Shown piece by piece: positions 7,100 to 53,812 of a stretch of 64,000 nucleotides of DNA. Numbering within the stretch: position 1 is the first letter of the stretch; every line of letters starts with the position of its first letter. Under the pieces are notes generated by a model. That model had not been told where the DNA came from. It saw only the letters and a program-made list of their open reading frames with translations, and ran no database searches. The stretch covers positions 39,705,424-39,769,423 of the forward strand of contig OZ029914.1 in the NCBI GenBank assembly GCA_964023275.1, written 5' to 3'. Source of the stretch: Norana najaformis (lineage: Eukaryota; Annelida; Clitellata; Crassiclitellata; Hormogastridae). Both the position numbers and the translations under genes were made by a program.

Positions 7100-7405
7100 T
7101 TGGAGTGCATAAAGAGTTGTAGTCCGGAATGTTTGAAGCTCCGATGCTTGGACGTGTTTTATTAGAAAAGAATGTCCTACAAGAATACTGGGTGTAGGAA
7201 TCAGAGTTGTCAGTGGCTATTTGCATCGTCAGAGTTACTCTGTTAGCAGTAATGTTGAGATGTCCGTTCATCTTTGTTCTATCTTTCGTGCGTATCCGCT
7301 CCATTGTTGGTGACCAGAATCCGCTGTATCCTACGCTGCAATAAAGCTCTGCACGAGTTGGCGAGTCTTTAGACGCAATTATCACGTTGCAGGTAGGATC
7401 AGAGT
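7100..7405 (-). CDS. IgR-2 D2 exon (second Ig-like domain)
   Basis: The acceptor TTTCTTTTGTAAAAG precedes phase 1 [12 protein letters not shown]. The domain has [20 protein letters not shown] and later [10 protein letters not shown], then donor CCAA|GTATGT in phase 1. The Trp that other copies carry after M-x is Arg here (MER), while the W of GFW remains. It is clearly homologous to the IgR-4 D2 exon. Confidence 0.75.
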
Positions 7406-8755
7406 CTTTTACAAAAGAAACAAGCATGTCTTTCAACGAAAGCTCTTAGATTACACAGCACAGACAAACTGCCTCGGTATTGCAGTTAGTATTCACTGCT
7501 GTTTGCTATTTTAAAGGGCATATAATAGAAAATGTAGTCCTGTAAGGCAGACATGTTATATTGTGGAATTTGTAAATTAAATACGTTTTGAAGAAACTGA
7601 AAACCGTCCCTAAACATGATCTAGAATCAGATCAGCTTGACTGATTTTTGAAAGTTTATAGATCAACTTAAAGGTCTCATAAAGTGGAGTAATTTAGATG
7701 TTCCAATTATTAAAACATATTTACACCAACTGCTTTGGGTTTGGAAACGTGTTAACAATCACAGGCTGCTACATTTAGAATAAGCACAATATAAGCATGA
7801 AAAGTTGCCTCTGAACTCCTTTTGGAGTCGAGAAGGTACCAAAACTCTTGATAAAGAACATTTCATTGTGCCGATGCCCATGATTATCCAAATTCGTTCT
7901 TAAGATTCATCAGGACATTAACACGTTTAGAGTTAAATGAGGCACTACGGCAGCTCTGAACTAAACTGTTTATAATACCTACCAAGAACCGTTAGTTGTG
8001 CTTCATATTCATATCCTGCGCCTTTACACTGTAATAATCCTGCGTTTTCAGAACGGATGGAATTGGTTTCCAAAGTCTGTCCCGGTAATTCACCATTCAC
8101 CACAAAATTAGAGAAATCCGGTGATACAATGTTACCGCCTTCGTTAAGTTTCTTCGGATCAAGTGTAGCGATGTCTTTTACATGATACCAATGAACTTTG
8201 CCTCTCGAATTTGATAGACACGATATGTTCATCTTGCTGCCAAAGAGCACTGCCATATTCCTGAGACTTGATGAAAACGTCGTTTCGCCTGAAACAGTTG
8301 CATTGAATACAGAACCTTAATCAAAGCTTTTTGTGAGAAACTGAAATTTCACCCCAAAATTGGTTTTCTTTATTCATTTAAATTCATTATAAGTTCTCGT
8401 TGGCCTAATTATTTCACACCGCATGACTAGCCTACATGGACCGATTTTTTTCTTCTTCTTCTGGTTCTCTGCCCTCAGGCAGGTTCAAACGTCCGATGAC
8501 GCCACTTCTGTCGGTGCTGAGTCTCCTCTTTCAGCCTGCTGTATCCGTCTGTTATCATCCAATCCAGCAGCATCTGTCTGGATCTTCCATGGACCGATCA
8601 GCCAACGCTGTTTTTTCTTGATACACAACAGACCTGTATTCATACACTGATACGTAGTGTTTAACGTATTTTAAATATGCAAGCATACCATATTTTAAAG
8701 TCATCACAAAAAGAAGGAAAACCATCGAGATCAACTTCCACGCTTTCCGTAGCAT
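7100..8755 (-). CDS. IgR-2: Ig receptor, three open exons (span)
   Basis: Minus-strand gene with signal exon 8755-8689, V exon 8288-7983 and D2 exon 7405-7100, all open and all phase 1. I find no TM, Cys-rich D3 or tail exon between 7100 and the convergent IgR-1, so the locus may be truncated, secreted, or have a tail exon I cannot see. V and D2 are much more like those of IgR-4 than of IgR-3 and IgR-5: both V domains end GQTL...C...AQL-VLG, and both D2 domains have GFW-P-M. It is therefore an IgR-4-type paralogue. Role at the cell surface as a recognition receptor is inferred from family architecture only. Confidence 0.65.
7983..8288 (-). CDS. IgR-2 V-set-like exon
   Basis: The acceptor CTGTTTCAG is followed by a phase 1 open exon ending CTTG|GTAGGT. 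It encodes about 102 residues: B-strand MNISC, C-strand VHWYH, then [18 protein letters not shown] and AQLTVLG. The usual D-x-G-x-Y-x-C F-strand motif is altered to E-N-A-G-L-L-Q-C: the acidic residue is Glu and the Tyr is replaced by Leu. The exon is otherwise intact. Confidence 0.75.
8689..8755 (-). CDS. IgR-2 exon 1, signal peptide
   Basis: ATG at 8755 (complement) opens 22 codons with basic start MLRKAWK and core [13 protein letters not shown], ending G|GTATGC in phase 1. Spliced to the next exon this gives a GE junction, as expected for a mature N-terminus. An upstream in-frame ATG at 8773 would add six residues. Confidence 0.6.
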
Positions 8756-16140: not shown

Positions 16141-16151
16141 TATTGCAGCAG

Positions 16152-16463
16152 GTGACCTGATTTCGATATTTCCATCGGACACAGAATCTAGAATAGGCCA
16201 AACTGTCACATTGTACTGCAGAATAAGCCATGCAGTCGGAACTGAAATTGAATGGCATCACACACCTTACGGTTTACAGCAAAATAACGCAGTTTACTTG
16301 GAAGAGATTATTTTTCCTAAATACCGGGGAAGATTTAGTGTTAGGGGTGACGCTCAGAAAGGCGAATGCAACTTAGTCATTTCCAATGTTAGCTTTGATG
16401 ACGCCGGAAAGTACAGATGCATGCACAAGAATGATAGTCATGCGGCAGAGTTGATCGTCTTCG
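16152..16463 (+). CDS. IgR-3 V-set-like exon
   Basis: TTATTGCAGCAG offers two acceptors three bases apart (exon start 16149 or 16152), both phase 1. The domain shows TVTLYC (B strand), IEWHH (C strand), YRGRFSV (D strand), CNLVISNVSFDDAGKYRC (E-F strands) and AELIVFG (G strand). Donor TTCG|GTATGT is a GT donor, unlike the GC donors of IgR-1 and IgR-5. All canonical V-set landmarks are present with no frame break. Confidence 0.85.
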
Positions 16464-18647
16464 GTATGTATTGTTGTCACCGCCTAAAATATCAGTGAGT
16501 AGGTTCTTTTGCTTCAGCACAGAGTTAAAGTCATTGCAGATTCAGCAGTTTACCTAGCATTTCCCATAGAGCGATGTAATCTGAAGTTTCTTTTTAAAGG
16601 AGTATTATTTATGTATCTGTATCCATATTGTCGCAAGGGCACGTGTGAAAGGGAAGGTTGGTTGTGTCCGATAGTGACACGTGCCCATGCTTCTGTCTGT
16701 GAAAAGGAGGTCGAAGGAGTGTTAGAAGGATGGTTGCCGCTCTTGACAGAACGCTGGATTGATGAAGGATATAAAAGGAAGGCTAGGCGGACAAGAGAAG
16801 AGATAATGGAGAAAACAGAAGTCCGACACAATTGAACTCATACCAGAATTGGGGATTCGTCCTGGCCAAACAATTCGTTTAACTCGACCGACTGGAGCCC
16901 GTAACAATATGAACCTTATAAGAACCTTACGCAGGTTCGTTATCGTCATCATCTTAAGCGTAATTGTTGCTGTCGTTATTTTCATCATCACAACAGCCAC
17001 TGTCGTTGTCGCTTATAGCCTGACCGATCATGACTTACTTTTATTGTTATTTTAAATTATGGAGGTACTGTCTTAAACACATGTGTATTATGACAATTGA
17101 TATTCTTGCTTCAACGAGACAGATAAATCGGGTTTCTGTTGCTCATTAGATATATCATTAGATTGATTCAACCTTATTTTTGTATTTGATGTTATGGGAT
17201 AGATAGTACTGCATATGAGGATTACTATATTTGCTGTTCTACTTTTTCAGCCACTTTTCCATCAAACCAGACTTGTTCTGTGATCACCCTACAGTATGGC
17301 GCATTAGGCAGCAATGTTTGCGACTTGGAACCAGATAACATAAACATATCATGCAATTATAGTTTTCGGGGAAATAAAGCTCCAGTAGTTATATGGAGAA
17401 ATGCCGCTGGATCTATTTTACCGTCGATAACTACCAGCAGAGCCGATGTCAACACTTCAACGCTAATTCATAAAGCTTTTACAGACGAGACGTTAACCTG
17501 TTATATAAAATATTTATCATCATATATTGAGTCGAAATTCAGGTGGACAGTATCCATAAAAGTTCTCAGTAAGTGCATTTTATAGTTTATTTACAATTGC
17601 TATGTCTTTATAGTTGTAACCGTTCCGTGTCGTTCTGGTTGATTATGTATAATATCAGAAAAAAACTAACTGAAGAAGTTACAAGTAAAGCAAAATAGTT
17701 TGGAAAGAATTTGTTTAAATTGGATGTGGCTAGCTGTCATTCTATCCTGCTAAGAATTTGGTGAAGGTGCTGTTTATATTTATATTTCAGATATATTGCA
17801 TGATGAAACCATCCAGAACACGTGTTGTGACTCGAAAGCAATAAATTGTGCTAAATCGCCCCTTCCATATAACTGTGAAAGCCGATGGGAGTCGTCAAAT
17901 GGCACCTTTCTCCCAAGCACCGTGCTAAACCCAACAGACCTGCCCAGCGGCTTGTATATATGCAGTGCACAATGCAGCATTCGAGGCAGAACATTTTCTG
18001 TTAAGCAACTAACAGTGGCTCTAAACTGCTCAAAGAGTAAGTTATTTTATTATTTATTTAAATCACTTAGGACGCGAGTAATGTCAGTAGAACTGAATCT
18101 GAGGCGCGGAGTACACCTGAATCTGAATCATTTTATTTGACAGGCCTGTTGAAATCAAACTTGAAGCGATTAATGTCATCTCCGATGATTGTATCAGTAT
18201 TTGTTCAAGGTTCTAACCGTGCTGCATAGCCTACTCATTTAGATGAAGAATATGCTGTGTCTAATGCAAACAAAGAAGCCGATCGAAATAGGGTAGATGG
18301 TTTTCAAACATTTAATTGAATAGCAGTATTAGTGTTAAAGACATCGGTATCGCCGTTGTCGGTGCCTATGTAGTTCATGGGTTGACAAGAGTGTGTAATT
18401 AGTTGAGGCTCACACATTGGAAGCCTAGTTTATTCCAATTCATTTGCATATGCTATTCAAATCAACATTTTGGGATGCAAAATGCTGTTTGAAAAAGCCT
18501 TTTTTGTGTAAAATGTGAATATGTTTTAGATAGTGCAACTACTGAACTATCGTCGATTCAGGATAAGAATCTAGCCATCTCTATTGCAGTTCCAGTCACG
18601 GTTGTTATAATCCTCCTCATCATAGCAGTTGTTTTAATCTTATTAAG
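16152..18647 (+). CDS. IgR-3: Ig receptor with V, D2, D3 and TM exons (span)
   Basis: Open exons: V (16152-16463), D2 (17251-17568), D3 (17791-18036) and TM (18530-18647). Phases are 1-1, 1-1, 1-1, 1-2, so the spliced product stays in frame from V to membrane. It is the most intact ectodomain in the window. No signal exon was recognised upstream. Two possible cytoplasmic continuations are listed separately: a basic exon at 19706 with a terminal exon at 19857, or a short acidic exon at 25823. The same four-exon core recurs in IgR-5. It should be a type I membrane receptor; ligand and signalling are not visible. Confidence 0.75.
17251..17568 (+). CDS. IgR-3 D2 exon (second Ig-like domain)
   Basis: Acceptor CTACTTTTTCAG, donor CTCA|GTAAGT, phase 1 at both ends. 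Motifs: QTCSVITLQYG, LGSNVCDLEPDNINISC, FRGNKAPVVIW and TLTCYIKYLSS. Several N-glycosylation sequons are present (for example NIS and NTS). The extra N-terminal Cys pair (QTC...NVC) is shared with IgR-1 D2 and may form a second disulfide. Confidence 0.82.
17791..18036 (+). CDS. IgR-3 D3 exon, Cys-rich Ig-like domain
   Basis: Acceptor TATATTTCAG, donor AAGA|GTAAGT, phase 1. About 82 residues with at least eight Cys: NTCCDS, INC, YNCESRW, LYICSAQC, NC near the end. The W and the LPSGLYIC pattern look like C and F strands of a short Ig domain, but the Cys density is unusual. It matches the IgR-5 exon at 59287 in length, Cys pattern and position just before the TM exon. Confidence 0.75.
18530..18647 (+). 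CDS. IgR-3 transmembrane exon
   Basis: Acceptor ATGTTTTAG. The exon encodes a short polar linker, then a hydrophobic segment of about 24 residues (IAVPVTVVIILLIIAVVLIL), and ends TTAAG|GTATGG in phase 2. The phase change from 1 to 2 at the TM exon is shared with IgR-5 (60063-60165). Confidence 0.8.
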
Positions 18648-19705
18648 GTATGGATCTGACGTTATTAATGCCGTTTATTTTGAAAAGCAACTTGGAATTA
18701 TAGCAAAACTAAGTATCATCGTATAAAGGCACAATCGAACCAACTAATCACTGTAGCCGGTAGTTTAAGCAAGTGCTCTGTGCGACGCCTTTATTAAGGA
18801 AAAAGGGTTTGTGGTTCCTTCTAATTCTAAAACGCTGCTAAACTTCAAAATTATAGCTACTGATGCATCACACCATATTGCGAGATTTGACAAATGTTAA
18901 TATCTGAGTTTAGCTTATATGTATTTTTCTGTCATATTACGGTTTGCGTTAAACTTTTAAGTGTTTTTACAATTATGGCCTAAATACATTAGATGTAAAT
19001 ATTACGCCATATCAGCTGTGATTTGCTACTGTCGGTAGACCTATTATTTGTTCTAATGCGAACGGCTATTTTGCCAGCTCTGGCAACTGAACAGCGCGAA
19101 CAGTAGAAGAAATATCTGGAGTGGATTTAAAGATAATAACCAGAGTTAAAGTGAATATCAGAACTTATGGTAGATATTATCAAAGTTGCAGCATAGATAT
19201 ACCATCCAGAAAATTGAATGTTTCGGGTTGTTGCATCCATGCACTTGGACAATTATTTAGGCATTTTAAAGATCAACTTTAAAAGGTTTTTACATGCTAA
19301 TTTGAAAGTTGAGAGTTGAGGTAAACTTAGGTGTATTTCGAGCTCGGTGATGCATGTGGGGAAGAGAAACAAAAGAGCTTTATATAAAATGGGGGTAGGA
19401 TTCTAAAGCGAGTAAGGAAGAAAGGGATTTGGGAGTAGTTATCCATAAGATTGCAAAACCTTAAAGGCAGTGTGCTGAGAAGCAGCAAAAAGACTCAACC
19501 TTAAGTGGTACAAATCACTGATGAGACCACAGTTGGCATACTAACTCAAGTATAGGATCCGTATTGAAACGTGTCATAGAACAATACGTGGAGAAAATGC
19601 AGAGGAGAACTACCAGTTCCGTCATAATAAATAATGAGATATTTGCAACAGTTACTCACATTGTAGCATATTGATTTGTTTCGATTGCCAAATTGTATCA
19701 CATAG

Positions 19706-30533: not shown

Positions 30534-31184
30534 TCAATCCTGACGTGACTGATATTTCTCGACACACTTCTTTTTATAGGTGATTTTATTTGTGGGGGCT
30601 GCAGGAGACGGTGTGAGGAATTCATACACAGTTGGACGGATTAAATCACGTCCAACAAGATACATGTAGTCATTCGTGTAAATTTGTTGACTGAATTCAT
30701 TTGGCACTATATAATCAGAAGTGGGATCAGAGTGACGACGCCTGAGTTCTGAATGAATAGGATCGTAATCAATCAGGTCAATGTATTCCTGTCGCCGAGA
30801 CTGACATCTGAATTTATCTGGCAATAAATACGGAGATTTTGAATCATGGTCATAAGATCTTCCATAGGGAAGAGTGGGATCTTCCATTAGATTCAGGTAC
30901 TGATGTGCCCGTGACGGGGCTTTGAATTCACTTGGGTCTAAGTACTCAGATTTTGAACCACTACTGTGAAAACTGACAGACGATGGATGACTGGTATAAT
31001 CGACAAGATCCAGGTACTCGTGTCCCCGAGACTGAGGTCTAAATTTACTTGGCAATAAATACCCGGCAGTTGAATTAGGCGTTTGAAATCTGACCGGCGG
31101 ACATCGTGAAAAACTCAGCAAGATCAAGAAAATGAGGCGTGCAATTTTTTCATTTGATACCAGATAGTCAGAAGCGAATCCAGG
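30534..31184 (-). CDS. Tyrosine-repeat cytoplasmic tail exon (3' terminal)
   Basis: A long minus-strand frame ends at TGA 30536-30534. It encodes four tandem units of 38-39 residues. Counting from the TTG codon at 31127, YxxP tyrosines lie at 23, 62, 100 and 139, and YxxL tyrosines at 38, 77, 115 and 154, so each pair is exactly 15 apart. Examples are GYLLPSKF with HEYLDLVDY, and EYLDPSEF with HQYLNL. A decayed fifth unit (SDYLVSNEK) may lie upstream. Possible 5' borders are 31184 (phase 0), or acceptors after CTTGCTGAG or CCGGTCAG (phase 2, matching IgR-5-type phases). There is no TM or Ig domain in it, so it should be the cytoplasmic end of a receptor, either an alternative end of IgR-4 or a remnant of another gene. 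YxxP and YxxL are known SH2-ligand types; use here is inferred. Confidence 0.7.
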   Translation of the reverse strand, partial: PGFASDYLVSNEKIARLIFLILLSFSRCPPVRFQTPNSTAGYLLPSKFRPQSRGHEYLDLVDYTSHPSSVSFHSSGSKSEYLDPSEFKAPSRAHQYLNLMEDPTLPYGRSYDHDSKSPYLLPDKFRCQSRRQEYIDLIDYDPIHSELRRRHSDPTSDYIVPNEFSQQIYTNDYMYLVGRDLIRPTVYEFLTPSPAAPTNKITYKKKCVEKYQSRQD

Positions 31185-31199
31185 CTATAAATATAAGGT

Positions 31200-33780
31200 A
31201 AGCTCTCCCAGAATGAAAAGGAACTTCAGTTAGAATAATCGAAGTAAATATGTAAGTAATGCATTTGTTAGCATTTGTGTACCGAAAATCATGCGGTTTA
31301 CGGACTTTGAATCGATGTTCAGAAACATTACAAAGTGTCTTCAGACTTCATACAACATCGCATAGATTTTGTATAAACATTAACATTATTATGTTGTTAT
31401 TAGTATAAACATTTTTATGTGAAAGCGCAACAAAAATATAACAAAAATAAATAGAAATATAATAATAATTATCTGCCCTAATCTGTTGATTTCTATAGCA
31501 CCGTCATCATTATGATAGAGCATCAGTCGATGGTCGTCTTAAGTGAAGCATTAATCAAAAACATAATCCGATAAAGTAGCCCGTCAAAAGCCAATAAATA
31601 GGTAAGAGAAATTAGAAGCCATACAGTACTTTTAATACTAATGAATAATGTATATTTAAAAAAAATTAATTGGAACTTAAACATGTTTCTTCTGAAAGTA
31701 GTAATTAGCTATAACCAAATCGTTTGTCCGACATAAATTTTATCACGGTATGGAAAAATGTATTAATAAATAATGTCATGTTCTTGTTGCTGTCGTTTTT
31801 CAATAAGGCGTTTGAAGAAATATCAAAGCTTAACTGGTCTTCGATTTAGACAATCGAACAAACGTGAATGAGTAGGTAAGGTAAGACGGAAACATTTTCT
31901 GCCCGTCTCAAGACGTTCCTCTTTAGAGACCATTAGGTAGCCGTGCTGCAGCGCCTTTCTGAGTTACTTAAAAGGAACTTCACTTAGAATAATTGATATA
32001 AATATCGATTATTCAAGTATATCGCTATACAAGTCTAGTGATACATATGTATGTACGTGATGCAAAGTAGTCGACGTATGTATTTTAAGTTCGCACAAGG
32101 CTGACTGAAAAATATAACCAAAAACCCAAAAACCCAACAGAAAATTAAAAAAACCAACAAAAAACTCAAACCACCTCCAAACTTGAGACGCAAGTTACGT
32201 AAACATGCAATCTAACAGAAATCTAACGTACTGTCCCTGACAGACACCAAGACTATTAACAAAAGAATTATACTCATTCCCATAAATATAGCCTACATGA
32301 ACGTAAGAAATCAGAATGATGTTACATGCCTAAGAAATTTTAGCATAGCAACATATCTTAGAGACATGAAGTCAACACTGTCTAAACCTGCAATACACTC
32401 TTATTGACTGTCACATGTGTATCAACTCCAAAGCTTTACGTGCACATTGTTCCAACATACATTCAGATGCACCAGTTGAGTATGAGTAAACCTAAGTGTA
32501 ATCGAGCTGTGTTGTAAGATTGGGAGACCATGTTATATCTGCTGCTCCGATAAACCACGAGAGCTACTGAAAATATTATTACTAGCACCATCGAAATTAC
32601 ACATTATGCGATCCGCATCTTAGCTTATTTATTACCAGCACAAAAATAATTCCCAGGTATTTCACCGAGTGTTTCTCGACACCTTTTTGGCATGAAAACA
32701 GACAAAGACGCCTCACATTGTGGCCCAATCACTAGGCACCAGGATATGAAACATTTAAGTGTGCGGCATAATTGACTGCTAACATAACCTCATTTAACAA
32801 GTAGGGCTTGAAGCCCATCAACTGATGTCCATAGCAGGATAATGCAACCAATCCAACACTTGTTGATACAAAAACCTAAGCCTACACAACGAGGGAGAAA
32901 CGGTACTCCCATCCGCACACCACTCCTTCCTGCAAGTGACTGTGACTTGGACATAGCCCACCGCAACAGATAGCTTAGGCCTATTATACCAATCAACCAG
33001 AATATCAACCACCAACAAGGGGCAACCGGACTTAAACCGATCGGAATAGAGTTTGTAATGATTAACAGTAGGACCTATCGTACGCCTTAGTCATATCAGT
33101 GGCTGTTGCAAACACTCTGCTGCCCTCTTTACCCGTAAAGTTTAAGACTATCGATGGAAATGTACGGCACATGACAATTATAAAAGTCCAGCACTGGCTA
33201 GGGCGTCACGGCGTCAAACAGCGCCGTTTAAATCTGCCTTTACATTTTGGTCACAAATCTTCATTGATTCATACATTTCTTCACGTATATGTATATGTGC
33301 ATTTTTCTGGATATTAATATCATGCCTGCTAGGACCTCTTAAGAGAACTCTTCGCCATTCTAAATAATGTCAGCGTTAAACACAGTAAGTGCATCATGCT
33401 CAAATAGCTGGAATACGCATCCATGAAAAGTTCTCGATCATATGGATCTCGAACCAAACAAGAAAATCTTGTTCTATATTTACAGACTTCATAGTTCAGA
33501 ATTCCTGAGTGACTGATTCAGCGGTGGTTTAAACAACAGCATAATAATTGATTCAAGGCAAAATAAGAAAGTAAAACTGTATCGAAGTTATAACTAATAT
33601 TTTCTCACATAACCACCCGCAAGTAAGCAAGCATGCAAGCAAGTAAGTAATGCATTTGTTAATACAACTAAAGCACACGCGCTCATGCGAATATAGCCTT
33701 ACCAAACCTGAACCGATCTAAATGCAGTTCTGTAGTGTCTTTGGAAACACTCGCGATAAAGAAATCAACTCTTAGGCCTA
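31200..33780. other. Gap between two receptor tail exons
   Basis: No Ig, TM or tail exon recognised. Contains a retroelement end (31900-31985) and an A/C-rich stretch at 32110-32180. If the tyrosine-repeat exon belongs to IgR-4, this is an alternative intron. Confidence 0.4.
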
Positions 33781-33798: not shown

Positions 33799-34151
33799 TC
33801 AACGACGAGGAATGTTGACATAGTCAACCGAATGTGCTTCTTCAACATCTACCGAGATTCGTTGCTGGCTTGTAAGGGATGCTTCTATGCTAGAGAGGTT
33901 TATCGGTTCATAGATAGCTCGTGGATGAGTTACTTCGGATCTAATTAAAGCACTGTACTTGACATCTGGCTCAGTTCCTTCAGGTGTGTCTTCCTCTGCC
34001 GCTGTTGCTGCAACATGCTCAGCGACGACGTCTTCGTCAGCAGGGACCACAGGAGGCGCCCTTTCCGTTGAAATGGCGGTGGATGTAGTGGCGAGATTCA
34101 CATCGTTTTCTGAAGGCCTTTGGGGTAGAGAAATTCCTTTAGAGTGTTCAG
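33799..34151 (-). CDS. IgR-4 cytoplasmic tail exon with ITAM/ITIM-like motifs
   Basis: Acceptor TGCTTTACAAAG, phase 1, open for about 116 codons to TGA at 33801-33799. A Pro/Ala/Glu-rich linker leads to three tyrosine motifs: VKYSAL (33946-33957 covers YSAL), AIYEPI (YEPI at 33901-33912) and VDYVNI (33811-33828), then PRR and stop. The first two tyrosines are 15 residues apart, matching YxxL-x(11)-YxxI, slightly longer than the classic 6-8 ITAM gap but within reported tolerance. It could signal as ITAM, as ITIM, or by adaptor binding; sequence alone does not decide. Confidence 0.75.
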
Positions 34152-37100
34152 CTTTGTAAAGCATAACGCAAATTTAGCACAACTTCCATAGCAGTTTAGA
34201 TACATAAGTTTAGGCTGACTGACTGACAGACTATGCCTCACTGACTGACTGATTGATTCACTGTGAATTACTGACTGACTGGCTGGCTGGCTGATTGACT
34301 GATTTGTTGTCTGGCTGGCTGGGTGGCTGTTTCTTGATTACGAACTTGTCCATACTGCACACATAAACACATACCTCGCGCTTTCCCGCGGCAGACAGTA
34401 AAGTAAAGCGTGACGGAGATGGTTATTGAAACTGAGATGAACAGAGGAACTGCGAGAATCACGGCAACCAAAACCAATGATTTATAACCTGCAAAGAGAA
34501 ACTCGGAGTATAATGCATTTACAACAATTCAGCCTATTGTAATGATGATAATGATGATGATGATGTTGATGATGATGATGATGATAAAGAGGTATCGATG
34601 GTGATAGTATTGATGTTAATAGGTTACTGCATGTTTGAGTAGGCTTTACTCTTTCTTTGGCTAAATGCTTATACAAGTTGTATATGGTCATTTTTGTAGC
34701 CATGCCGGCCCTTATGTAATAATTTATAATCGTTCATAAAACACAACTGCGACCTAAGAGAGTGTTTGCTGAGCAATAAGTCATAAGGCTGTACGCTAAA
34801 TTAAACAAATTAACTATGGTTACCTGTTTCGTTTTTCCTTCAGCTTAAAAGGAAACAGCTATTTGACTTATTTTGAAAGAACAGCTTACTTTGGCTCTAC
34901 ATATAACGCTAACAACAATGAAAATTACGGAGAGCTGGATTACAACATTTATGATGGCAAGATGGCACCTGAAGCACTCTCCCATAAGCAATGACTTTGC
35001 AACGTCCTCTTTTAGCTATTTCTTTGATGGTGCACGTGTAAATGAGCTCCGAATATTGTATTGAGTCGAACCCGAGAAATGTTACAATGCACTATATATT
35101 AACCAAACTGAATGATGTTTAAATAAGTAATTTTTCACTTACAGCTTGACTGCATAACATCAAATTCTTAAACTAAAATTAAATAGTTGTTACAGTTTAA
35201 ATATATTTTAGCTTTGCAGAGTTTTTGGCACTTTTCCTCGGGGATTCTCGAGCTGGGAGCGCCCATGAGTAACTGCTTCTGTAGCAGGCGATACATAAAT
35301 TGTCAAATACAATACAAGTACAGTCTTTGTGATTAAAAACTTTAATGTTGCTAAAAATTGGTTTTTACTTTAATAGTTAAGACAATGTGAGGGTGAAAAT
35401 ATACATTGCACAGAGATGAGCGATTTGGAAAGAAAGTTTGGGGTGGTGAGGAAGTTAGAACAGGTGGCTGCATAGATAGTCGTGATGGAATAAAACTAAA
35501 AATGTGAGATCCGTTGGTCCCCGCTTGAGGACAGAAACATATTCAAGACTTTCCTACTAGGAATTCTCAATGGTCGGTACGGGACCAGAATATATCAGGA
35601 AGCCATGTGATTCTGTATCAATCCATTCAGGTCGAACGACAGTGCACCCTACAGCACTCGAAGACCTGTTGACATACAGCGATTCACATACTTTGTGCTT
35701 TATCGTGCATCGGACCGTCCTTCCCAAACAGTACTTCACTGAAATTAGAACTTTATCGCAAGAGATAGTTCGGAAAACATTTTCAGGTGGTCTTATCACT
35801 ATAAATTGTTCTCTTTTAGATCTGCTATACGTAGATAGGCATATTTCAACATACTTGAGAGGCTCTTAAAAGGCGTTGCATACACACATACATGTATACA
35901 TACATAAACACATACATGCATGTATGCATGCATACATACATACATACACGAATACATGCAAATATACTGTATGTATGCATATACATATTACATACATACT
36001 TGCATACATACATTCTAGCACGTCACGCTCTATCGCATGTGACAATCATAACCGCAAGTATCATCGTCGTTATTATATTGATCGCTAAGCTTAATCACAA
36101 TATTGCAATGCAAGCTGATGACTTTACCATTATTAGTTATAGGCGCGTGTTGTGTTGTTACGTCCTTATCCAGCTGAGCATTCTGTGTTGCAGAATTGTA
36201 AACAGCATCTGAGAAGAAATCAGTTATTTAACTACATATGGTTTTCAATTTAAAATTATAAATATATATATATGATTGAACGATATAACCTTAATGTATT
36301 TCGCATCCAAACAATAATCGAACAGCGATTTATATGATACGAGCAATGCTATGCTATTGTTAGAAAGCTTGAGTCTACATGAACTATTTCGTGTAGTACC
36401 TGAACTGAATGTGAATGTAAAGTTTGGAACGTTTCTGACTATCTGATTCTCGTCTTTCAACGTATTGTCTTCGGCTACGAAGTATGTTTTGCATGAATAA
36501 CTCGCAGTGCTTCCAACTGATTCGAGTTCGATTGTCAAAGCAGTTGAAAGGCTCGTCGGCAATCGCTGCTCTTTGCTTTCTAATATTCTAGCACCATTCA
36601 TCCATTGCATACATGGAGGCCAGAAACCTGTGTAGTTTACTCGACACCACAAGTCTACGAAGCCCCGACGATTAACACTGGGTGCTGCGCCACATACTGG
36701 CTTAGACTCTAAAGCATCAAAAGGCTAAGCTAGTTAAGGAAAAGCATGTGTAGCCTACATGAATTACATTGCATTGGCTTATCCTAACATTTTTGTAGAA
36801 TAACTTCCACTAGTTTTAGAAACTGTTTATATAGGAATAGTTCTCATAGTGTAAACGGTTCATGCCCAGACATGGTTGCGAGCATCATCACCAGCGAGTT
36901 GAAGAGCCAATAGTCCGCCACTGAGATGTGTTTTCGGACAGACTTTGACAATATGCGCCGTAGTCTGTACTACACCACAGCTGCACGAAGGATCAGTGGC
37001 TTGACCCAATTTGACGAGATTGTATGCACAGCAACCCTGGCCTGACAGAATCGGTTAAGTGCAGACCAGAGTCGTCGAGGCAAGTTGAAGCCTTTAGGAC

Positions 37101-40100
37101 AGGCAGACAGACAGACAGACAGACGGCTCAGCAATGAAGAGTGGTTAGGTGCAGTGTTTTATTATAAATATCAACTGCGGCCATCACATACACAATCTTA
37201 TTTACATGTAGGTATAATTCCCCTGAAGGCCAACAAGTCATAGATAACTCTGGAAGATTTGATAAAATATTTCATTTGAAATTAAAAGTTAATGTGGCAC
37301 TACATTTGATAACATAAAATGTTAGAGTGCGCAGCTAATAGAATCAAATGCAATTTGTTAACTCGTTATCCTTCAACTTTCTTTTGTGAAAGAAGGGCCG
37401 ACGAATAAAGCTGTAATGCTGACAGGTTGGTCATACCCTTGCTTTGCTATGGTACAGCCTCATCTTATATCTGTGGCGACCGTCGGGGCCATATAAATGT
37501 TTCTTTAAGCCGTCACTGTCATAGGAGCTGGGCCCCGCTGTCAAAAGTGCATACAGATGTATATACGTCAATGGTCGTTTCGTGCGCCTGCACCGGCTGC
37601 AGCATCTTTGGCAGTTCGCTGCACTTTTTGAACTTCGCGTCAAGCTGCTAGGTGTATAGGCTAGGTAGGTGATGGAGTGCAATAGGCAAGAAAGGGCTTT
37701 TGAAGGTCAGCTGCAGTCGGTCTGATCGTCGCCATTGTTGATAAGACAGGAATTTTTGATGGATCGAAGTTTCGCTCGATTTCATCAATCGTTCGAGGTT
37801 TTTGGGTAATTTAAGGTTTCGGAAATAGAGTTTTAAGTGTAGGTGAAGCCTGGCGAATTGGATCGCCGACTCTGTTCGAATATTTGCGATTTGATGAGAT
37901 TTTGTCAGTCTTGGTGATGACCTAATTTTCGGCTATCATTGCTGTACTACGTTTGAAACCATCTTTCAGACATTGGTCCGACATTATTGGATGTATCGCT
38001 GTCAAATTGAGGATTTAACGATTGGATTAACCTTGATTGTGATTTCATCCCCGACTCTCAAAATCTCTTAAGAAGTGAACGCCGATTTTCGCCGGTCAGA
38101 GTAAGGTGTCTTGGTACTATCTGAATTCGGGACCCGTCATACTACATGCCCGAGTCGCTTCGCTACTTTCTTATCAGGGAGTTAAATTTTATTTTCTTAA
38201 GGTTTAATCTTCGATGGGCTAAAATCTTACGCTCCAAGCCAAAAAATGCCTAGTAATTAAAAGTAGTAATTTCCGACAAACTTGACGATTGAAGTACACT
38301 TAGCACTTTCCTTTACCTGCTAACGGAATTGTATGCTGCAATTTGTAATTTGCATAAGTCGTTTTGATAGCTAAGATCAAAGGAATTTACAAGGAAATAC
38401 GGCTGAGTCTGGTCCTGGCTTACCAAGTGTTGAAGTTCAGGGACGGATTGGACCAAAGTCTTGCCGAGTTCATATCCGCTCTCGGGACAACTCAGGCCCA
38501 GATGAAAGAGGATTTAATAGAGCGCCAGAAGTAACTCATGGAAAGTCAGGCCAGGCTAACAGAGGAGATGAGAGATGAATTTATACAGTACCAAAGTCAA
38601 TTCTCTGAAAGACAGATCCAAATGGAGGAGAGTTTGATAGAGCGCCATAACAAATTTATTCATGAACAGGCTTCGTTCAGGGAAGAGATGAGGGACGAAA
38701 TTATAACGCGACAGGTCGATCGGGGAGCTGAAACTGGCCAGAAACTTGTATCGCCACCTCAGGAGTCCAAGGAGTATTCAGCGTTGGAGCGGGAGGAAAA
38801 GTCTGCCGAGGACGCCAACATGGACGAGGCGTGCTCTCGAGAGCAGCAGTTTCCAGCTCAGAAACCGCGGACAACATTCGGCCATCTGGTGACATAAACC
38901 TGGAGCGTCCTCCGCTAAGGCGTAGCATTTGACTCGGTAAGAAAGCTCCAGTGTATTACGGAGGAGATGCAGTCAGAGCCCCAAGAGTACAGACGTTGGA
39001 GCCGGGTTCGAATCCGCAGCCTACGCTAATAAGACAGGTGGTTCCTTCCTCCGGGCGTCCTCGACAGCACGCGGTGACCTTTCAAGCCGAGGGGTCACGC
39101 CCGACATATCTCTTTCAGACCACGTTCACATATGCTTAAGATTTTAATGTCAGCCAACAGATATTATTGGCGGTTAATTTTGATGGATGACGTGTGGATC
39201 TAACGACAGAATAGTGACACTAGAATAACCGTACAAAAGAAAAATCACCTAAGACAATTAGTTGAGCAGAAAGTTCCTCTCCATTGACTAAGCATTTGAA
39301 AATTCCAGAGTTTTCCAATTGCACTGGATTGATATTTAAAGTCTGTCCATGCACTCGACCCGTTGCATTTGTATTTGAAAAATTGGCATGGGAAATTTTT
39401 ATTCCGTCAAAAAGAATTTGTTCCAGGTTATCTTTTGGCGAAGTATGAAACCAGAAAACGTTAGCTGCTGAACCTTGTGCACATGTCATCTGCGTCGCTT
39501 CACCAGCAATGACCGCCTTATTCTTCGGCCCTTCGTGAGCTTTAGCCACAGCTACAACATCAACTGACGATGGTAATAAGTAGGCATATAAATACGGGTT
39601 TGTCTGAACATTGATGCAGCGCCCTTCAGAAATCTATCAAAGATGTTAAAGACACTAGTCTAAAGATAAGTTTGGGGTCTCTTCAAAAATCACAAGTGTT
39701 CTTCCGAATTGTGAGGAGGCCCTATCGCAAGCAATACTTTTCAAACCTTATGCTTACTGCTGGAAAAGGCTCCAGTAATAACGTTTCCAAAGTAGGCCTA
39801 TTAACATATAATAGTTGCTATTTTCACATATCATTTCTAGTATTGCCGCTAATATTCACGTTAGACTGTGATATCTTATCATTACCTACATTAAAAGGCA
39901 CGCGCAGTATATTAATGCAGCAATTCAAAATCAAATTACTTCAAATATAATGAGTCTTTTATAGTTACTGAGAAATGGAGTGCTGTAAACGCTGGACATT
40001 TTTATTTGCATTTACAAGAGGGAATTGGGCTGGAATAGCACGGAGATGCGAATGCGCAATGTTAGCACTTTGCTCAGGTGATTGATAAAATTCCACGAAT

Positions 40101-41499
40101 CTAAACTTTTAAACAGTTTTCTTTAAACAAAATCGAAGTTTTGTTGTTATTTTAAAACAAAGTGAAATTGAAGAAAATTTCCCCTCACCCATTAAATAAA
40201 TTTAATTTCATTAAACGACGTTTACTGCAAGGCTGAAATTACACTTACTGTGAAACCTAGGCCTATTTTGCTTTCTACCTCTCACCGTTCACTATTATTT
40301 TAGTTCCAATTTTTGGTAATAAACAGAATTTTATACGGCATTGCGCAAAATTAATTCTAGTCACCTATCATGATACTTTACAATCAGCCATGAGCTTCAA
40401 AAAGGGGTAAAAAGCACTTTTAAAGACTTTTTGATTTTTTGGCCAAAACCAAAATTCCAGCCTCCTAACATTCTATATCCATTGCCATCTAATAAGCAAA
40501 TTCACATACAAATCGGTCATGGCGTATTACTCAGTGGCATAACAGATAGAGAAATGGCATAATAGATTTTCTGTCTGAAAAATTTTAGGAGGCATATCTT
40601 GATTCTTAAAGTTTTAGCTATTCACAAACGCTTAACTAATAACGTATGCACGGGAGTGCATATATAATTCCGTTGTCAACTCAAGCATAAGTCTAAACGC
40701 AATATTTGCGCAAACCTTTTGCTCTAAAGTATTGCGATTTTAAATTCAAAATTTAAATTCAGAATTAGTCTCTTAAATTTCATTTATAAATCTCGCTCAA
40801 GGATGATGCTCGTAAGTTTAAGTCATTTTACAGCTAATGCGCCCTAAACGTTTTCGAACTTCTAAATTTTTACCGAAGCTTCATTATATTTTGCTTTCAT
40901 AAACAACAACAAGCTTATTAAATAAACCCCGACTAAGCAGTTTCGTGCGTTTCACATGAATAATTAGCATTACTTCCAACTGACTCGGCTTCAATTGTCA
41001 AAGTAGTTGAAGGCTTGTTTGGCAATCGCTGCTCTTTGTATACCAAAACTAAGTCACAAGCAAACTTATCTAACGCATACATTATTGCCATTTAAATCAT
41101 AAATTTGTCTGTTTTACTAAAAGTGTCAGCTTTACTTAGGCCTATATGAACGCCCATATTATGCTTTAATTATATAAGCGCCTATAGGCTTAATTTGACT
41201 CGTTTTGTATGTTACACTATTGTGTGCTGAATTGTAGGCCTACTTTGCACAATTATTTGACTATTTTAATTGCTTGCCAAAGTTTGAGTGGCTTTCTGGT
41301 TTTGCTTTTTTTTCTGAATTGTAAGACATACAGTATTAATAGAATATGCAAACAGAAACCTTAAAAACATGAGATGACCTGCTTTATGGTAACATGCATT
41401 TGTAATCATTCATGTAATTTAAACGAGTTCCATACTGTGGCAGAACACAGTTTTCCGCTTACCTGTGACAAAAAATAACATCAGAAGCACGGGAAGCAT
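33799..41499 (-). CDS. IgR-4: Ig receptor with tyrosine-motif tail (span)
   Basis: Minus-strand gene: signal (41499-41463), V (39563-39249), D2 (36708-36400), TM (34488-34375) and tail (34151-33799). Every junction is phase 1, so the five exons give one continuous frame from ATG to TGA. This is the only complete receptor in the window. The tail carries VKYSAL, AIYEPI and VDYVNI. Together they fit an ITAM-like pair (YxxL-x11-YxxI) and two ITIM-like hexamers (VxYxxL, VxYxxI), the motif classes that recruit SH2 kinases and phosphatases in immune receptors. Introns hold a duplicated D2 fragment (40946-41047), a gag-like remnant and SINE pieces. Ligand unknown. A Cys-rich D3 like that of IgR-3 was not found with confidence. 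Confidence 0.78.
34215..34335. repeat. (GACT)n/(GGCT)n tetranucleotide array
   Basis: Imperfect CTGACTGACTGA and GGCTGGCTGG units directly next to the IgR-4 TM exon, in the TM-tail intron. Confidence 0.8.
34375..34488 (-). CDS. IgR-4 transmembrane exon
   Basis: Acceptor TTCTCTTTGCAG. Encodes YKSLVLVAVILAVPLF followed by ISVSITISVTLYF, about 29 apolar residues, then CRGKAR as a basic stop-transfer, and donor GCGAG|GTATGT in phase 1. Unlike IgR-3 and IgR-5, the exon ends in phase 1. Confidence 0.8.
35235..35325 (+). repeat. SINE family S1, 3' end only
   Basis: GGGGATTCTCGAGCTGGGAG, GCGCCCATGAGTAACTGCTT and ATAAATTGTCAAATACAATAC match the end of the copy at 21.0-21.1 kb. Shows the last 90 bp can occur alone, as in LINE-mobilised SINEs. 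Confidence 0.55.
35855..36010. repeat. Retroelement end plus (ATAC)n microsatellite
   Basis: GAGGCTCTTAAAAGGCGTTGCATAC then ACAT/GCATACAT units to about 36010. Same junction type as 12.14 kb. In the IgR-4 intron between D2 and TM. Confidence 0.65.
36400..36708 (-). CDS. IgR-4 D2 exon (second Ig-like domain)
   Basis: Acceptor TTGATGCTTTAG, donor TTCAG|GTACTA, phase 1. Contains KPVCGAAPSV, FVDLWCRVNYTGFW, PPCMQW, LTIELESVGS, ASYSCKTYF and a Thr/Phe-rich end (NFTFTF). It has the full C-x-V-x-Y-x-G-x-W-x-P-x-M-x-W signature. Confidence 0.8.
36720..38399. other. Gap: IgR-4 intron
   Basis: Short GACA repeat at 37108-37125 and GC-richer text at 37420-38160 that may be the leader of the gag-like element. 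Nothing firm. Confidence 0.35.
38400..39135 (+). pseudogene. Gag-like coiled-coil remnant
   Basis: Frame 38430-38900 is a heptad-rich helix with repeats (MKEDLIERQK, LTEEMRDEFI, MEESLIERHN, FREEMRDEII), broken by TAA at 38532. A second frame at 38951-39139 (GGDAVRAPRV, RPRQHAVTFQAEG) follows. Length, coiled coil and basic/Pro end suggest an LTR-element Gag, but no zinc knuckle, protease or RT is seen, so this is a guess. Sits in the IgR-4 intron between V and D2. Confidence 0.4.
39249..39563 (-). CDS. IgR-4 V-set-like exon
   Basis: Acceptor CCATCGTCAG, donor CTTAG|GTGATT, phase 1. Motifs: ATQMTC (B), NVFWFH (C), HGQTLNI, LENSGIFKC (F) and AQLIVLG (G). As in IgR-2, the F-strand Asp and Tyr are replaced (E-N-S-G-I-F-K-C). 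One sequon (NAT) is near the middle. Confidence 0.78.
40946..41047 (-). pseudogene. Duplicated fragment of the IgR-4 D2 exon
   Basis: On the minus strand this reads KEQRLPN...STTLTIEAESVGS then NANYSCETH. The IgR-4 D2 exon at about 36480-36580 reads KEQRLPT...STALTIELESVGS then TASYSCKTY. Similarity starts and stops inside the domain, so it is a partial copy. It lies between the IgR-4 signal and V exons, as a record of local duplication. Confidence 0.7.
41463..41499 (-). CDS. IgR-4 exon 1, signal peptide
   Basis: ATG at 41499 (complement) encodes MLPVLLMLFFVT and ends ACAG|GTAAGC, a strong phase 1 donor. It is short for a signal peptide, but cleavage may fall in the next exon, which starts VDVVAVAK. 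Confidence 0.65.
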
Positions 41500-50444: not shown

Positions 50445-53400
50445 TCCCCCTCAAAGTCCGACTCACACCTCAACGTGGTGAGGGGGTGAAAACAGCCAAG
50501 TAAGGGAATGCCTGCTGAGGCTATGCCATCAGTGGTGAAGGTCTTGGCCGAGGTACCACCTAGGGCGCTTCGCGAGGTGGACAGGCTCAGCAGGAACCCT
50601 GAAACAGCTGGCTAACGTGGGCGGCAACGCCGCCTCTGGTGCCACAAGGATATCAGAGCCAGTCCCAAGCCTGGAACTCATTTCATAGAGAAGTGCAAGG
50701 GTCGAACGGATGGGTGCAGATACTCCGTTCATAAAGGAAACAGACGAAGGAAATCCAATGCAATGACAATCATAGATAGAGGATCCCGGCTCGGACGTCG
50801 CCCGGGCAAACAAGGTCCGCGTCCCCAACCGATCGACCGGGGTTGGGTCGAAAAATTGGCTACCGGAGAATGGAATGATCAACAGAAACTGAGATTTGCG
50901 AAGCATGAACTTACGGTTGGAACATGGAATGTGAGGACATTGTGGGCTGCGGGACAGTTGGAGCTGCTGAGGAAGGAAATGGAAACATATCGATGGGATA
51001 TTCTGGGTATGTCGGAAATGAGATGGACAGGGACTGGGGAGTTAAACAATGGAGAAGTGATATGGTCAGGGGAGGAACAGGAACACCAGAGAGGTGTGGG
51101 ATTTCTACTGAACTCAAGGGCTAGGGCAGCACTACTAGGGTATAAGCCAGTAAACTCCAGGATGATTGCAGCTAGATTCAGTGGACAACCTCTGAACATA
51201 TCAATCATTCAGATATATGCACCAACAGCAGACAGCACAGAGGAAGATATTGAAGAGTTTTATGAGAACCTGGAGAACACCCTGAATGACTTGCCAAGGA
51301 AAGACATCAAGATCATATCTGGAGATTGGAATGCAAAGATTGGCAAGGACAACACAGGTTGGGAACACATAATGTCGAAATATGGGTACGGAACAAGGAA
51401 TGAGAGAGGAGAGAAACTGCTGGAATTTGCTGCTAAACAAGAAATGATAATTTGCAACACCAAATTCAAACAAAAGGACTGCAGGAAGTATACATGGACA
51501 TCGCCAGATGGAAAACACACCAACATAATAGACTTAGTGCTGATTGGCAGAAGATGGCAAACATCAGTAAAGCTGTGCAGAACATTCCGAGGAGCGGACA
51601 TATCGTCTGACCACAACTTGGTGCTCTGCAACTTGAAGCTAAAGCTGAGGCGCATACCCTGCCAACAATATGTAAAGAAGAGAAACATTCAAGTTCTTGA
51701 CAATGTGGAGGTACGGGCTCAATATGAAGATGAAATAACACAGAGAATTAAAGACGCAGATATGAAACAACTTGATATGGAAAGGAAGGTGGCCATGCTA
51801 AGCGTGATCATAGAGCAGTCAGTGGAAGCAGTCATACCTTTAGCAGAACAACCAAAGAAGAAATGGATAAGTGAACGAACACTAGAATTAGCAAAAGAAA
51901 AAAGGAAGATGAGACTGAAGGCAAAGGAATCAGAACAGGCAAAACTGGAGTACAGAAAACTGTGTAACACAGTGAGGTCATCAGCCAGAAGGGACAAACA
52001 GAACTGGTTGGAGAAACAGTGTGGTGACATTGAACAATATGCAGGGGAATATAAAACAAGGGAAGTGTTCAAGCTGATAAAAAGTATAAACGGAAAGTGG
52101 CAACCAAAACAGACAGCAATTAGGGACAAACAGGGAAATATCCTGATGGACAAGGAAAAGATTAGGGAACGATGGACGGAGTACTGCAGCGAGCTATACA
52201 GTCTGAAGGAGCAAAAGAACAAAGAGCTAATCGAAGAATTACAAGGTATGACGCCACCAGCTGAAGATGATGAGAATGATAACATCCTATATGAAGAGGT
52301 AGAATGGGCGGTTAACCGCCTGAAAAACAATAAAAGCCCTGGAACAGATGGAATAACAGGAGAAATGATAAAAGCTGGAGGGCAGGATCTGATACAAGAA
52401 ATACACAATATATGCAAGCAGGTGTGGCAAGAAGGAAGAATACCGGAGGAATGGACAAAGTCAGTACTTGTAACAATACCAAAGAAAGGAGATCTAACAT
52501 TGTGTAAGAATTATAGAACTATTGCACTAATAAACCACATGGGAAAAGTGCTTATGACAATCCTGTTGCGACGTTTGAAGGCAAAAACTGAAGAATACAT
52601 GTCAGATGAACAAGCAGGGTTTAGAAAGGATAGAAGTACAGTCCAACAAATTCTGATGTTACGATTGATTGCCGAAAAAGCCAAACGAAAAAACAGGCTT
52701 ATATACAACTGTTTTGTGGACTTCCAAAAGGCATTCGACTCCATCAAGCACGATGTTACCTGGGCAATCCTGAAATCAGATGGAGTAGGCGACAGACTGA
52801 TACAGATTCTACAGAACATTGGAGAGAGATCAAAATCTGCAGTGAAAGTGGGACGGGAACTAGGAAGATAATTGCAACCACAATAGGGACGAGGCAGGGA
52901 GATCCAATTTCACCTAGTATGTTTATTACTTACTTGGAAAGAGTCATGCAGGACATACGAGATAATGGAACTGGAATCTCAGTGCAGGGAGAACTCATCA
53001 ATAGCCTACGATTTGCAGATGACATTGACCTGCTGGAGAACAGCTGCGACAGGCTGCAGGAAAATGTGTGCGGACTGAACCTACTTGCCGAACATGCTGG
53101 CCTAAAAATAAATGTGGATAAAACAAAAACAATGGTATTTGGCAAGGAGACAATAGACATGGAAATTAAAGTGCAAGATGAGGTGATTGAAAATATAAAG
53201 GAGTTTGTGTACCTAGGAAGTCTCATGACATGGAATAATGATTGCGCAAAAGACATAAAGGCAAGAATAATAAAGGCAAAAGGAGTTATGGCAGGGCTAA
53301 ACAACATCTGGAAAAGCAGGAAAATAAGCCACAAGACCAAACTAAACGTCTTGAAAACATGTGTGTCTAGCACAGCTCTGTATGCATGTGAGGCATGGAC

Positions 53401-53812
53401 AATCAAAAAGACGGATAAAGATAAGATATTAGCATTTGAAATGTACTGCTATAGACGAATATTACATCTGAATTGGACAATGAAGGTAACAAATACGGAG
53501 GTCCGAAGAAGACTGAGCATAAAAGAAGATCTAATACAAGTAATAATGAGAAGGAAATTACGCTTGTTTGGACATATATGCAGGATGGATGACAGTAGAA
53601 AAATAAAAAGCGTGATGATGGGAATTATGGACGGAAATGGGAGACGAGGAAGACCTAACAGGGAGTGGACAGATGATATAAGGGATTGGTGTAAGCAAGA
53701 CTTGCACGCCTTGATAAGAACAGCACAAGATCGGGAACTGTGGAGACAAGTGACAATGCATGCAGTGGACACCTACGGGCTCTCGGCCCATGTATCATGA
53801 TGATGATGATGA
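50445..53812 (+). mobile_element. Full-length RTE-like LINE, 3.37 kb
   Basis: A complete non-LTR retrotransposon: a 5' leader of about 320 bp, endonuclease-reverse transcriptase, and a TGATGA tail at the stop. It is bounded by identical 12-bp copies of TGACCTATTTTT at 50433-50444 and 53813-53824. A perfect duplication and near-open coding imply recent insertion. The 3' end on a short repeat rather than poly(A) is typical of RTE-type elements; exact clade is tentative. Confidence 0.88.
50763..53800 (+). CDS. LINE endonuclease-reverse transcriptase, one frameshift
   Basis: The first frame (50763-52871, 702 codons) has AP-type endonuclease motifs GTWNVRTL, SEMRWTG, SGDWNAKIG and SSDHN, then RT motifs NNKSPGTDGITGEM, IPKKGDLTLCKNYR, EQAGFRKDRST and FVDFQKAFDSI. 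Just before 52871 the frame shifts by one base: the next motif, TRQGDPISPS (52888-52917), and the catalytic RFADDIDLL box are in the frame that runs to TGA at 53800. The C-terminus has LRLFGHICRMDD and RRGRPNREW. The enzyme would nick and reverse-transcribe at the target. The break lies near GTGGGACGGG and is the only one seen, so it may be a sequence error or a first inactivating mutation. Confidence 0.85.

What the first reader, a model, noticed from the sequence alone, without database searches (positions are those of the whole stretch)
30534..31184. Tail exon with four tandem YxxP/YxxL modules at constant 15-residue spacing
YxxP tyrosines at 23, 62, 100, 139 and YxxL tyrosines at 38, 77, 115, 154 give eight tyrosines in strict register over 38-39 residue repeats. 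The sequence between drifts while tyrosines and spacing stay, which suggests selection on a multivalent phosphotyrosine scaffold. I know of no standard receptor tail with this repeat.
Basis: partly seen in the sequence, partly recalled or inferred. Interest (0 to 1): 0.85.

Follow-up and report, generated by a model that had tools for sequence, protein, structure and literature searches.

The report
Truncated multi-tyrosine receptor tail exon
This is a broken-off copy of the inner tail of a family of probable sea-squirt cell-surface receptors, whose better-preserved sister copies carry eight evenly placed tyrosines that have stayed unchanged while much of the tail drifted.

Summary
The pattern is real. 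The minus-strand ORF 31184-30534 has four YxxP/YxxL pairs, each 15 residues apart; 0 of 100,000 shuffles reached three. It is one of 8 copies of a tail exon, all on one strand within 293 kb of the window's own 608-Mb genome, probably an ascidian's. In four copies (L002, L003, L005, L006; L006 shortened) the exon follows a transmembrane exon of matching phase, below lectin plus CUB-like, or Ig V-type, exons. All 16 motif positions are invariant in 7 copies, against 62 of 141 other codons (p=6e-6), and 16 of 16 match one independent relative. So selection on a multivalent tyrosine tail is supported for the family. The window's own copy differs: a deletion of about 5-7 kb removed its transmembrane exon, native acceptor and first ~105-120 codons, and two indels scramble the next stretch. 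It is most likely a relic beside an ITIM-bearing Ig receptor gene; use as an alternative last exon is not excluded. New variant of a known kind.

The parts
30534..31184 (-). Tail ORF (216 aa + stop): 3' part of the multi-tyrosine tail exon
   Evidence: homologous to L002-L008 and P0001
31059..31061 (-). Module 1 YxxP tyrosine (Y42); its YxxL partner Y57 at 31014-31016
30942..30944 (-). Module 2 YxxP tyrosine (Y81); YxxL partner Y96 at 30897-30899
30828..30830 (-). Module 3 YxxP tyrosine (Y119); YxxL partner Y134 at 30783-30785
30711..30713 (-). Module 4 YxxP tyrosine (Y158); YxxL partner Y173 at 30666-30668
31117..31147 (-). Scrambled upstream module: out of frame between a 1-nt and a 2-nt deletion relative to the paralogs (approximate)
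   Evidence: alignment of 8 copies
31184..31185 (-). Deletion junction: 3' flank of the type A gene joined to the tail exon at the codon that is about 119th in L003 and 105th in L002; transmembrane exon, acceptor and 5' part missing
   Evidence: matches to the L007 unit stop at 31185 and resume at 31184; the interval is 5.1 kb there and about 7.2 kb in the L004 unit (there the flank match runs on to 31164)
31190..32300 (-). 3' flank of the type A gene, present downstream of all four A genes
33799..34151 (-). Type A gene, terminal tail exon (tail1) with ITIM-like VKYSAL and VDYVNI and a stop
34375..34488 (-). Type A gene, transmembrane exon (phase 1/1)
36128..36208 (-). Type A gene, hinge exon
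   Evidence: borders by eye
36400..36708 (-). Type A gene, second Ig-like exon (Pfam Ig_3 only E 0.12)
39249..39563 (-). Type A gene, first Ig exon (Pfam ig 8.2e-6)
41463..41499 (-). Type A gene, putative signal-peptide exon
   Evidence: by eye

Best explanation
The ORF is a 5'-truncated copy of the cytoplasmic-tail exon of a tandemly duplicated receptor family (type B) in a probable ascidian. SHOWN by sequence: the better-preserved copies have a transmembrane exon followed by one tail exon (243-342 codons) with four [YxxP-15-YxxL] modules of 38-39 residues, usually one extra YxxP upstream and a C-terminal YEFL; the motif residues are kept more than the rest; the window's copy lost its transmembrane exon, acceptor and first ~105-120 codons by deletion. 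INFERRED: in intact receptors, ligand binding by a lectin/CUB-like or Ig ectodomain leads Src-family-type kinases to phosphorylate a disordered tail. The pYxxP sites then dock Crk/Nck-type SH2 adaptors and the pYxxL sites other SH2 proteins, so that one tail gathers several adaptors at fixed spacing, as in the p130Cas substrate domain but fixed to a membrane receptor. The window's copy is most likely an unused relic beside a self-contained ITIM-type Ig receptor gene (type A).
For: Eight copies, one strand, one 293-kb stretch. Transmembrane exon of matching phase upstream in L002, L003, L005, L006. Two ectodomain types above the same cassette: SUEL lectin (Pfam 1.3e-9 in L005; L002 77% identical) plus CUB-like exon in L002/L005; Ig V-set (2.8e-8 in L006; L003 93% identical) in L003/L006. 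16/16 motif codons invariant in 7 copies against 62/141, with silent variation in 5 of the 16. 16/16 against 93/172 versus P0001. Deletion junction mapped. Single-sequence model beyond residue 42 almost wholly under pLDDT 50. YxxP arrays docking Crk/Nck SH2 domains: PMC12071665, passages seen.
Against: No transcript, phosphorylation or binding data. Whole-exon dN/dS is not low (0.49-1.16). P0001 breaks the 15-residue register in 3 of 5 modules, counting the upstream one. The window's copy still has a 216-codon open frame with all core motifs, which could mean use; keeping them by chance is not improbable (about 0.3 by my arithmetic from 11 changes over 157 codons). Paralogs may be homogenised by gene conversion, which would also keep motifs. 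Ectodomain-to-tail linkage rests on order and phase read by eye; the Ig V-exon donor is weak, and start/signal exons of type B genes were not sought.
Confidence: 0.75

Rival explanations
1. The window's truncated exon is a working alternative last exon of the neighbouring type A gene, swapping an ITIM tail for a YxxP/YxxL tail.
For: It lies 2.6 kb downstream of tail1 on the same strand. The junction happens to create an acceptor-like ttatatttatag. tail1 contains phase-0 donor-like sites at 34101, 33933 and 33852 (phases are printed one too high). In the L004 and L007 units the tail exon keeps a phase-1 acceptor that fits the type A transmembrane donor. Motif-swapping splicing is reported for Botryllus FcoR genes (PMC12065747, section 11 read).
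Against: The donor sites are weak (5-6 of 9 consensus positions). The type A transmembrane exon ends in phase 1, the junction acceptor would need phase 0. The stretch around residues 12-23 is out of frame. Polarised changes fit neutrality. The L007 tail is itself frame-shifted near its end.
Confidence: 0.15
2. The YxxL elements are endocytic sorting signals (Yxx-hydrophobic), not SH2 sites, and the array serves receptor traffic.
For: YLDL, YLNL, YIDL, YMYL fit the AP2 pattern (recalled consensus).
Against: The alternating YxxP sites do not fit it yet are equally invariant. Such signals are usually single and near the membrane (recalled).
Confidence: 0.12
3. The repeats are a neutral tandem duplication with motifs kept by youth or gene conversion.
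For: Whole-exon dN/dS up to 1.16; the copies are close relatives.
Against: 16/16 against 62/141 invariant (p=6e-6), and the same 16 kept in P0001 at 57-61% identity.
Confidence: 0.05

Closest known systems
p130Cas (BCAR1) substrate domain
   Same: Array of repeated YxxP sites that dock Crk/CrkL/Nck SH2 domains when phosphorylated (15 YxxP; PMC12071665, passages seen)
   Different: Adaptor protein with SH3 and other domains; here a receptor tail with alternation YxxP-15-YxxL and no Pfam match at E<=0.1
Botryllus schlosseri fester co-receptors (FcoR)
   Same: Ascidian type I receptors in multigene clusters next to partner genes, Ig ectodomains, long tails with ITIM, hemITAM or core YxxI/L/V motifs (PMC12065747 section 11 read)
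   Different: FcoR ectodomain is V-Ig, sushi, two C2-Ig; no sushi match in the exons scanned here, a SUEL/CUB-like type exists here, and no YxxP/YxxL module is mentioned in the section read. One fuhc-tm primer site gave no match in this genome
ITIM receptors (dual-ITIM type)
   Same: The type A tail beside it fits (VKYSAL, VDYVNI)
   Different: The core YxxL sites of the array lack the -2 I/L/V/S residue

Membership tests
ITIM receptors | [ILVS]xYxx[LVI] around the core tyrosines | tested here: not met
   0 of 4 core YxxL sites in the window tail match; the only hit is a side site, IDYDPI. Side sites also match in L003, L005, L007 (1 each) and P0001 (3)
ITAM receptors | Yxx[LI] x6-8 Yxx[LI] | tested here: not met
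   No hit in the 8 tails scanned (window, 6 paralogs, P0001)
hemITAM receptors | acidic run, G, YxxL | tested here: not met
   No hit in the same 8 tails (pattern recalled)
Cas (p130Cas) family | repeated YxxP sites | tested here: met
   4 in the window; 4-6 in each of 6 paralogs
Cas (p130Cas) family | SH3 domain and cytosolic adaptor layout | tested here: not met
   No Pfam family in the L003 tail exon; transmembrane exon upstream instead
Botryllus FcoR | tail with core YxxI/L/V motif | tested here: met
Botryllus FcoR | V-Ig, sushi, two C2-Ig ectodomain | tested here: inconclusive
   V-Ig found in L003/L006; no sushi in the exons scanned; gene models not complete
Botryllus FcoR | species is B. 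schlosseri | tested here: inconclusive
   Ascidian mitochondrial code supported; fuhc-tm exon 4F primer absent at up to 3 mismatches (1 of 15 listed primers tested); assembly 608 Mb/17 contigs against 533 Mb/16 scaffolds
Multivalent phosphotyrosine receptor tail | tyrosines are phosphorylated and bind SH2 domains | not testable with these tools
   needs peptides or cells

The most novel reading that the evidence does not exclude
In an ascidian immune or allorecognition receptor cluster, one transmembrane/tail cassette with 8-9 evenly spaced docking tyrosines is combined with unlike ectodomains (SUEL lectin/CUB-like, Ig V-type). Where it sits behind an ITIM-type Ig gene, splicing can exchange the inhibitory tail for the scaffold tail, so the same binding event may give opposite outputs.
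Probability: 0.25. Interest if true: 0.8.

Novelty: new variant of a known kind. Interest (0 to 1): 0.5.

Why it matters
A receptor tail with spaced, alternating YxxP and YxxL sites, kept while the rest of the tail drifts, would be a natural test case for how number and spacing of phosphotyrosines set signalling output. Its place in a cluster of Ig and lectin receptors in a probable ascidian, beside ITIM genes, bears on how activating and inhibitory immune signalling was wired before vertebrate adaptive immunity.

Tried and rejected
The first idea, that the exon is the last exon of the type A gene, was set back by phase (type A transmembrane exon ends in phase 1, junction acceptor needs phase 0) and then by finding the native transmembrane exon in paralogs. 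The weak similarity of tail1 to the P0001 N-terminus (p 0.04-0.05) was dropped once L003 showed the true homologue. A shared deletion with L008 was considered and rejected: L008 keeps flank beyond the window's junction. The type A ectodomain search found no relative at E<=0.1. A Pfam scan gave nothing for the CUB-like exon and the L003 tail. PDB search of the ORF gave only 2 matches, E 0.74 and 0.96, taken as chance.

Literature: searches aimed at such tails or receptors listed no paper that I could see describing this module; I saw listings only, and subscription journals are mostly not held. Papers: PMC12065747 abstract, passages and section 11; PMC12448946 passages; PMC12071665 passages; PMC9966394 and PMC2753633 passages; PMC3691228 passages and section 6; others by listing only.

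An earlier count said that the plus-strand genes have short tails; that was not tested and is withdrawn.

Full report
Observation. The minus-strand ORF 31184-30534 encodes 216 residues. It holds YxxP tyrosines at 42, 81, 119, 158 and YxxL tyrosines at 57, 96, 134, 173, each pair 15 apart. In 100,000 shuffles of the 189 C-terminal residues, 98,923 had no such pair, 1,073 one, 4 two, none three or more (a pattern picked after the fact). Modules are 24-55% identical in protein and 47-67% in DNA, so this is old repetition and not a fresh duplication.

Family. The window lies at C2:39705424-39769423 of its own 608-Mb, 17-contig assembly. The ORF has 9 matches there at E<=0.001 (8 copies, one in two pieces), all minus strand, C2:39479301-39772652; 13 candidates were scored. 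Fetching the neighbourhood showed that the native exon is 243-342 codons long in 6 readable paralogs, with a phase-1 acceptor (cag|AATTA or cag|ATTTA), and that a transmembrane exon with phase-1 ends lies upstream. L002, L003, L005 and L006 have readable transmembrane and tail exons; L006 has an internal deletion and L002 ends a few codons early. L004 has a broken and L007 a stop-bearing transmembrane exon, L007 also a shifted end. L008 is in pieces and has a stop. So 4 of 8 copies could be working. L002 and L005 have a SUEL lectin exon (Pfam 1.3e-9 in L005; L002 77% identical) and a CUB-like exon upstream (CUB is my reading; Pfam gave nothing). L003 and L006 have an Ig V-type exon (V-set 2.8e-8 in L006; L003 93% identical). 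Borders of the lectin, CUB-like, transmembrane and tail exons read as phase 1 by eye; the Ig V-exon donor is weaker. Signal exons of these genes were not sought.

A relative elsewhere. One protein in a 5.8-billion-sequence collection, P0001 (269 aa, from a 1,051-base contig, organism not given), matches at E 3.5e-49. It was the only hit at E<=1 in two searches, which find only relatives that share short exact words and have a similar length. It covers the tail exon from about its 40th residue. Its pair spacings are 12, 10, 15, 16, 15 (positions).

Selection. Over residues 28-186 and 7 copies (L008 left out), the 16 motif positions (8 Tyr and the +3 Pro/Leu) are all invariant, against 62 of 141 others (Fisher p 5.8e-6); without the window's copy it is 16/16 against 71/141 (p 4e-5). 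5 of 16 motif codons vary silently. Against P0001 it is 16/16 against 93/172 (p 1e-4). Five of 8 other tyrosines are kept. Pairwise NG86 dN/dS runs 0.49-1.16 in the 21 pairs of 7 copies, so the rest of the tail is loosely held or diversifying. Closeness of the copies and possible gene conversion weaken the paralog test; P0001 is the one independent check.

The window's copy. Its match to the L007 unit stops at 31185 and resumes at 31184: on one side is the 3' flank of the type A gene, on the other the tail exon from about the codon that is 119th in L003 and 105th in L002. The same points lie 5.1 kb apart in the L007 unit and about 7.2 kb apart in the L004 unit (in L004 the flank match runs on some 20 bases). 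The flank occurs downstream of all four type A genes. Relative to the paralogs there is also a 1-nt and a 2-nt deletion in the first 25 codons; between them the frame is shifted. No transmembrane exon of the type B kind matches in the window at E<=1e-3. Polarised changes since the split from L003 are 11 nonsynonymous and 5 synonymous (L003 branch 16 and 5). This does not show constraint after truncation. The single-sequence model is unstructured except for a helix in the first 25 residues, which hold the shifted stretch.

Surroundings. The type A gene (41499-33799, minus) has putative signal, Ig, Ig-like, hinge, transmembrane and tail exons; it occurs 4 times. Its tail has two ITIM-type sites here and ends in a stop in 4 of 4 copies. 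A third type (C; Ig, Ig, Ig, transmembrane, tail) was seen whole in two places; its first two Ig exons also match at a third. Plus-strand genes with V and C exons, in part a Cys-rich exon, lie between them; transmembrane-like segments follow in the two of the window. This resembles the paired FF/FcoR clusters of Botryllus (PMC12065747, section 11 read).

Organism. Two degenerate COX1 copies on C15 have AGR codons where COX1 has conserved glycines (GxGxG in L036, the Gly before (K/N)LAHAG in both). The Gly reading scores 177.9 bits against mammalian COX1 and aligns from residue 2, the Ser reading 171.4 from residue 15 (a typed chimera of the two copies). Against a number of distant bacterial oxidases the Ser reading scored slightly higher (e.g. 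90.5 against 89.9 bits), there with the GxGxG part outside the alignment. One AGR site reads better as Ser (FSWLAT, by eye). AGR=Gly is the ascidian mitochondrial code (table 13). The species is not settled: a B. schlosseri fuhc-tm primer site has no match at up to 3 mismatches, and neither published assembly of similar size that I saw fits both numbers (B. schlosseri 533 Mb/16, passages; Aplidium turbinatum 605 Mb/18, listing).

Mechanism. Most likely, in intact members: ectodomain engagement, tyrosine phosphorylation of a disordered tail, SH2 docking of Crk/Nck-type adaptors at YxxP and of other SH2 proteins at YxxL (inferred from the motif class; YxxP-Crk/Nck from PMC12071665, passages). 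Core sites are neither ITIM, ITAM nor hemITAM by pattern.

Verdict. A real and, by these tests, selected multi-tyrosine tail in a family; the copy found here is most likely a truncated relic.

Noticed in passing
window 16151-18723 + and 55304-60166 +: Plus-strand receptor-like genes with V-set, C-type and Cys-rich exons and a transmembrane-like segment, lying between the minus-strand genes; their tails were not mapped.
   Followed up: partly
window 7167-8262 -: Two further Ig-type exons (27-35% to type A Ig exons), another minus-strand gene whose downstream exons were not found.
   Followed up: partly
L032:464-3799 - (C2:39700464-39703799): Type C gene: three Ig exons, transmembrane exon, tail with YVDL, SAYLRI, YMVL, YSSL; a second copy at C2:39544609-39547961, and Ig exons of a third at C2:39610875-39611850.
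   Followed up: partly
window 40936-41049 -: Relic fragment of the type A second Ig exon (63% identity) inside intron 1.
   Followed up: no
window 50616-53797 +: LINE-type element: endonuclease and reverse transcriptase domains (Pfam RVT_1 1e-13), in two overlapping frames.
   Followed up: no
window 31889-31983 (approx.): About 95-bp repeat inside the type A 3' flank; 39 of the 44 matches listed for the 1,111-base query cover only this part, on many contigs (40 of 1,253 first-look candidates were scored).
   Followed up: no
L035, L036 (C15:412069-412726, 570464-571281): Degenerate nuclear copies of mitochondrial COX1.
   Followed up: partly
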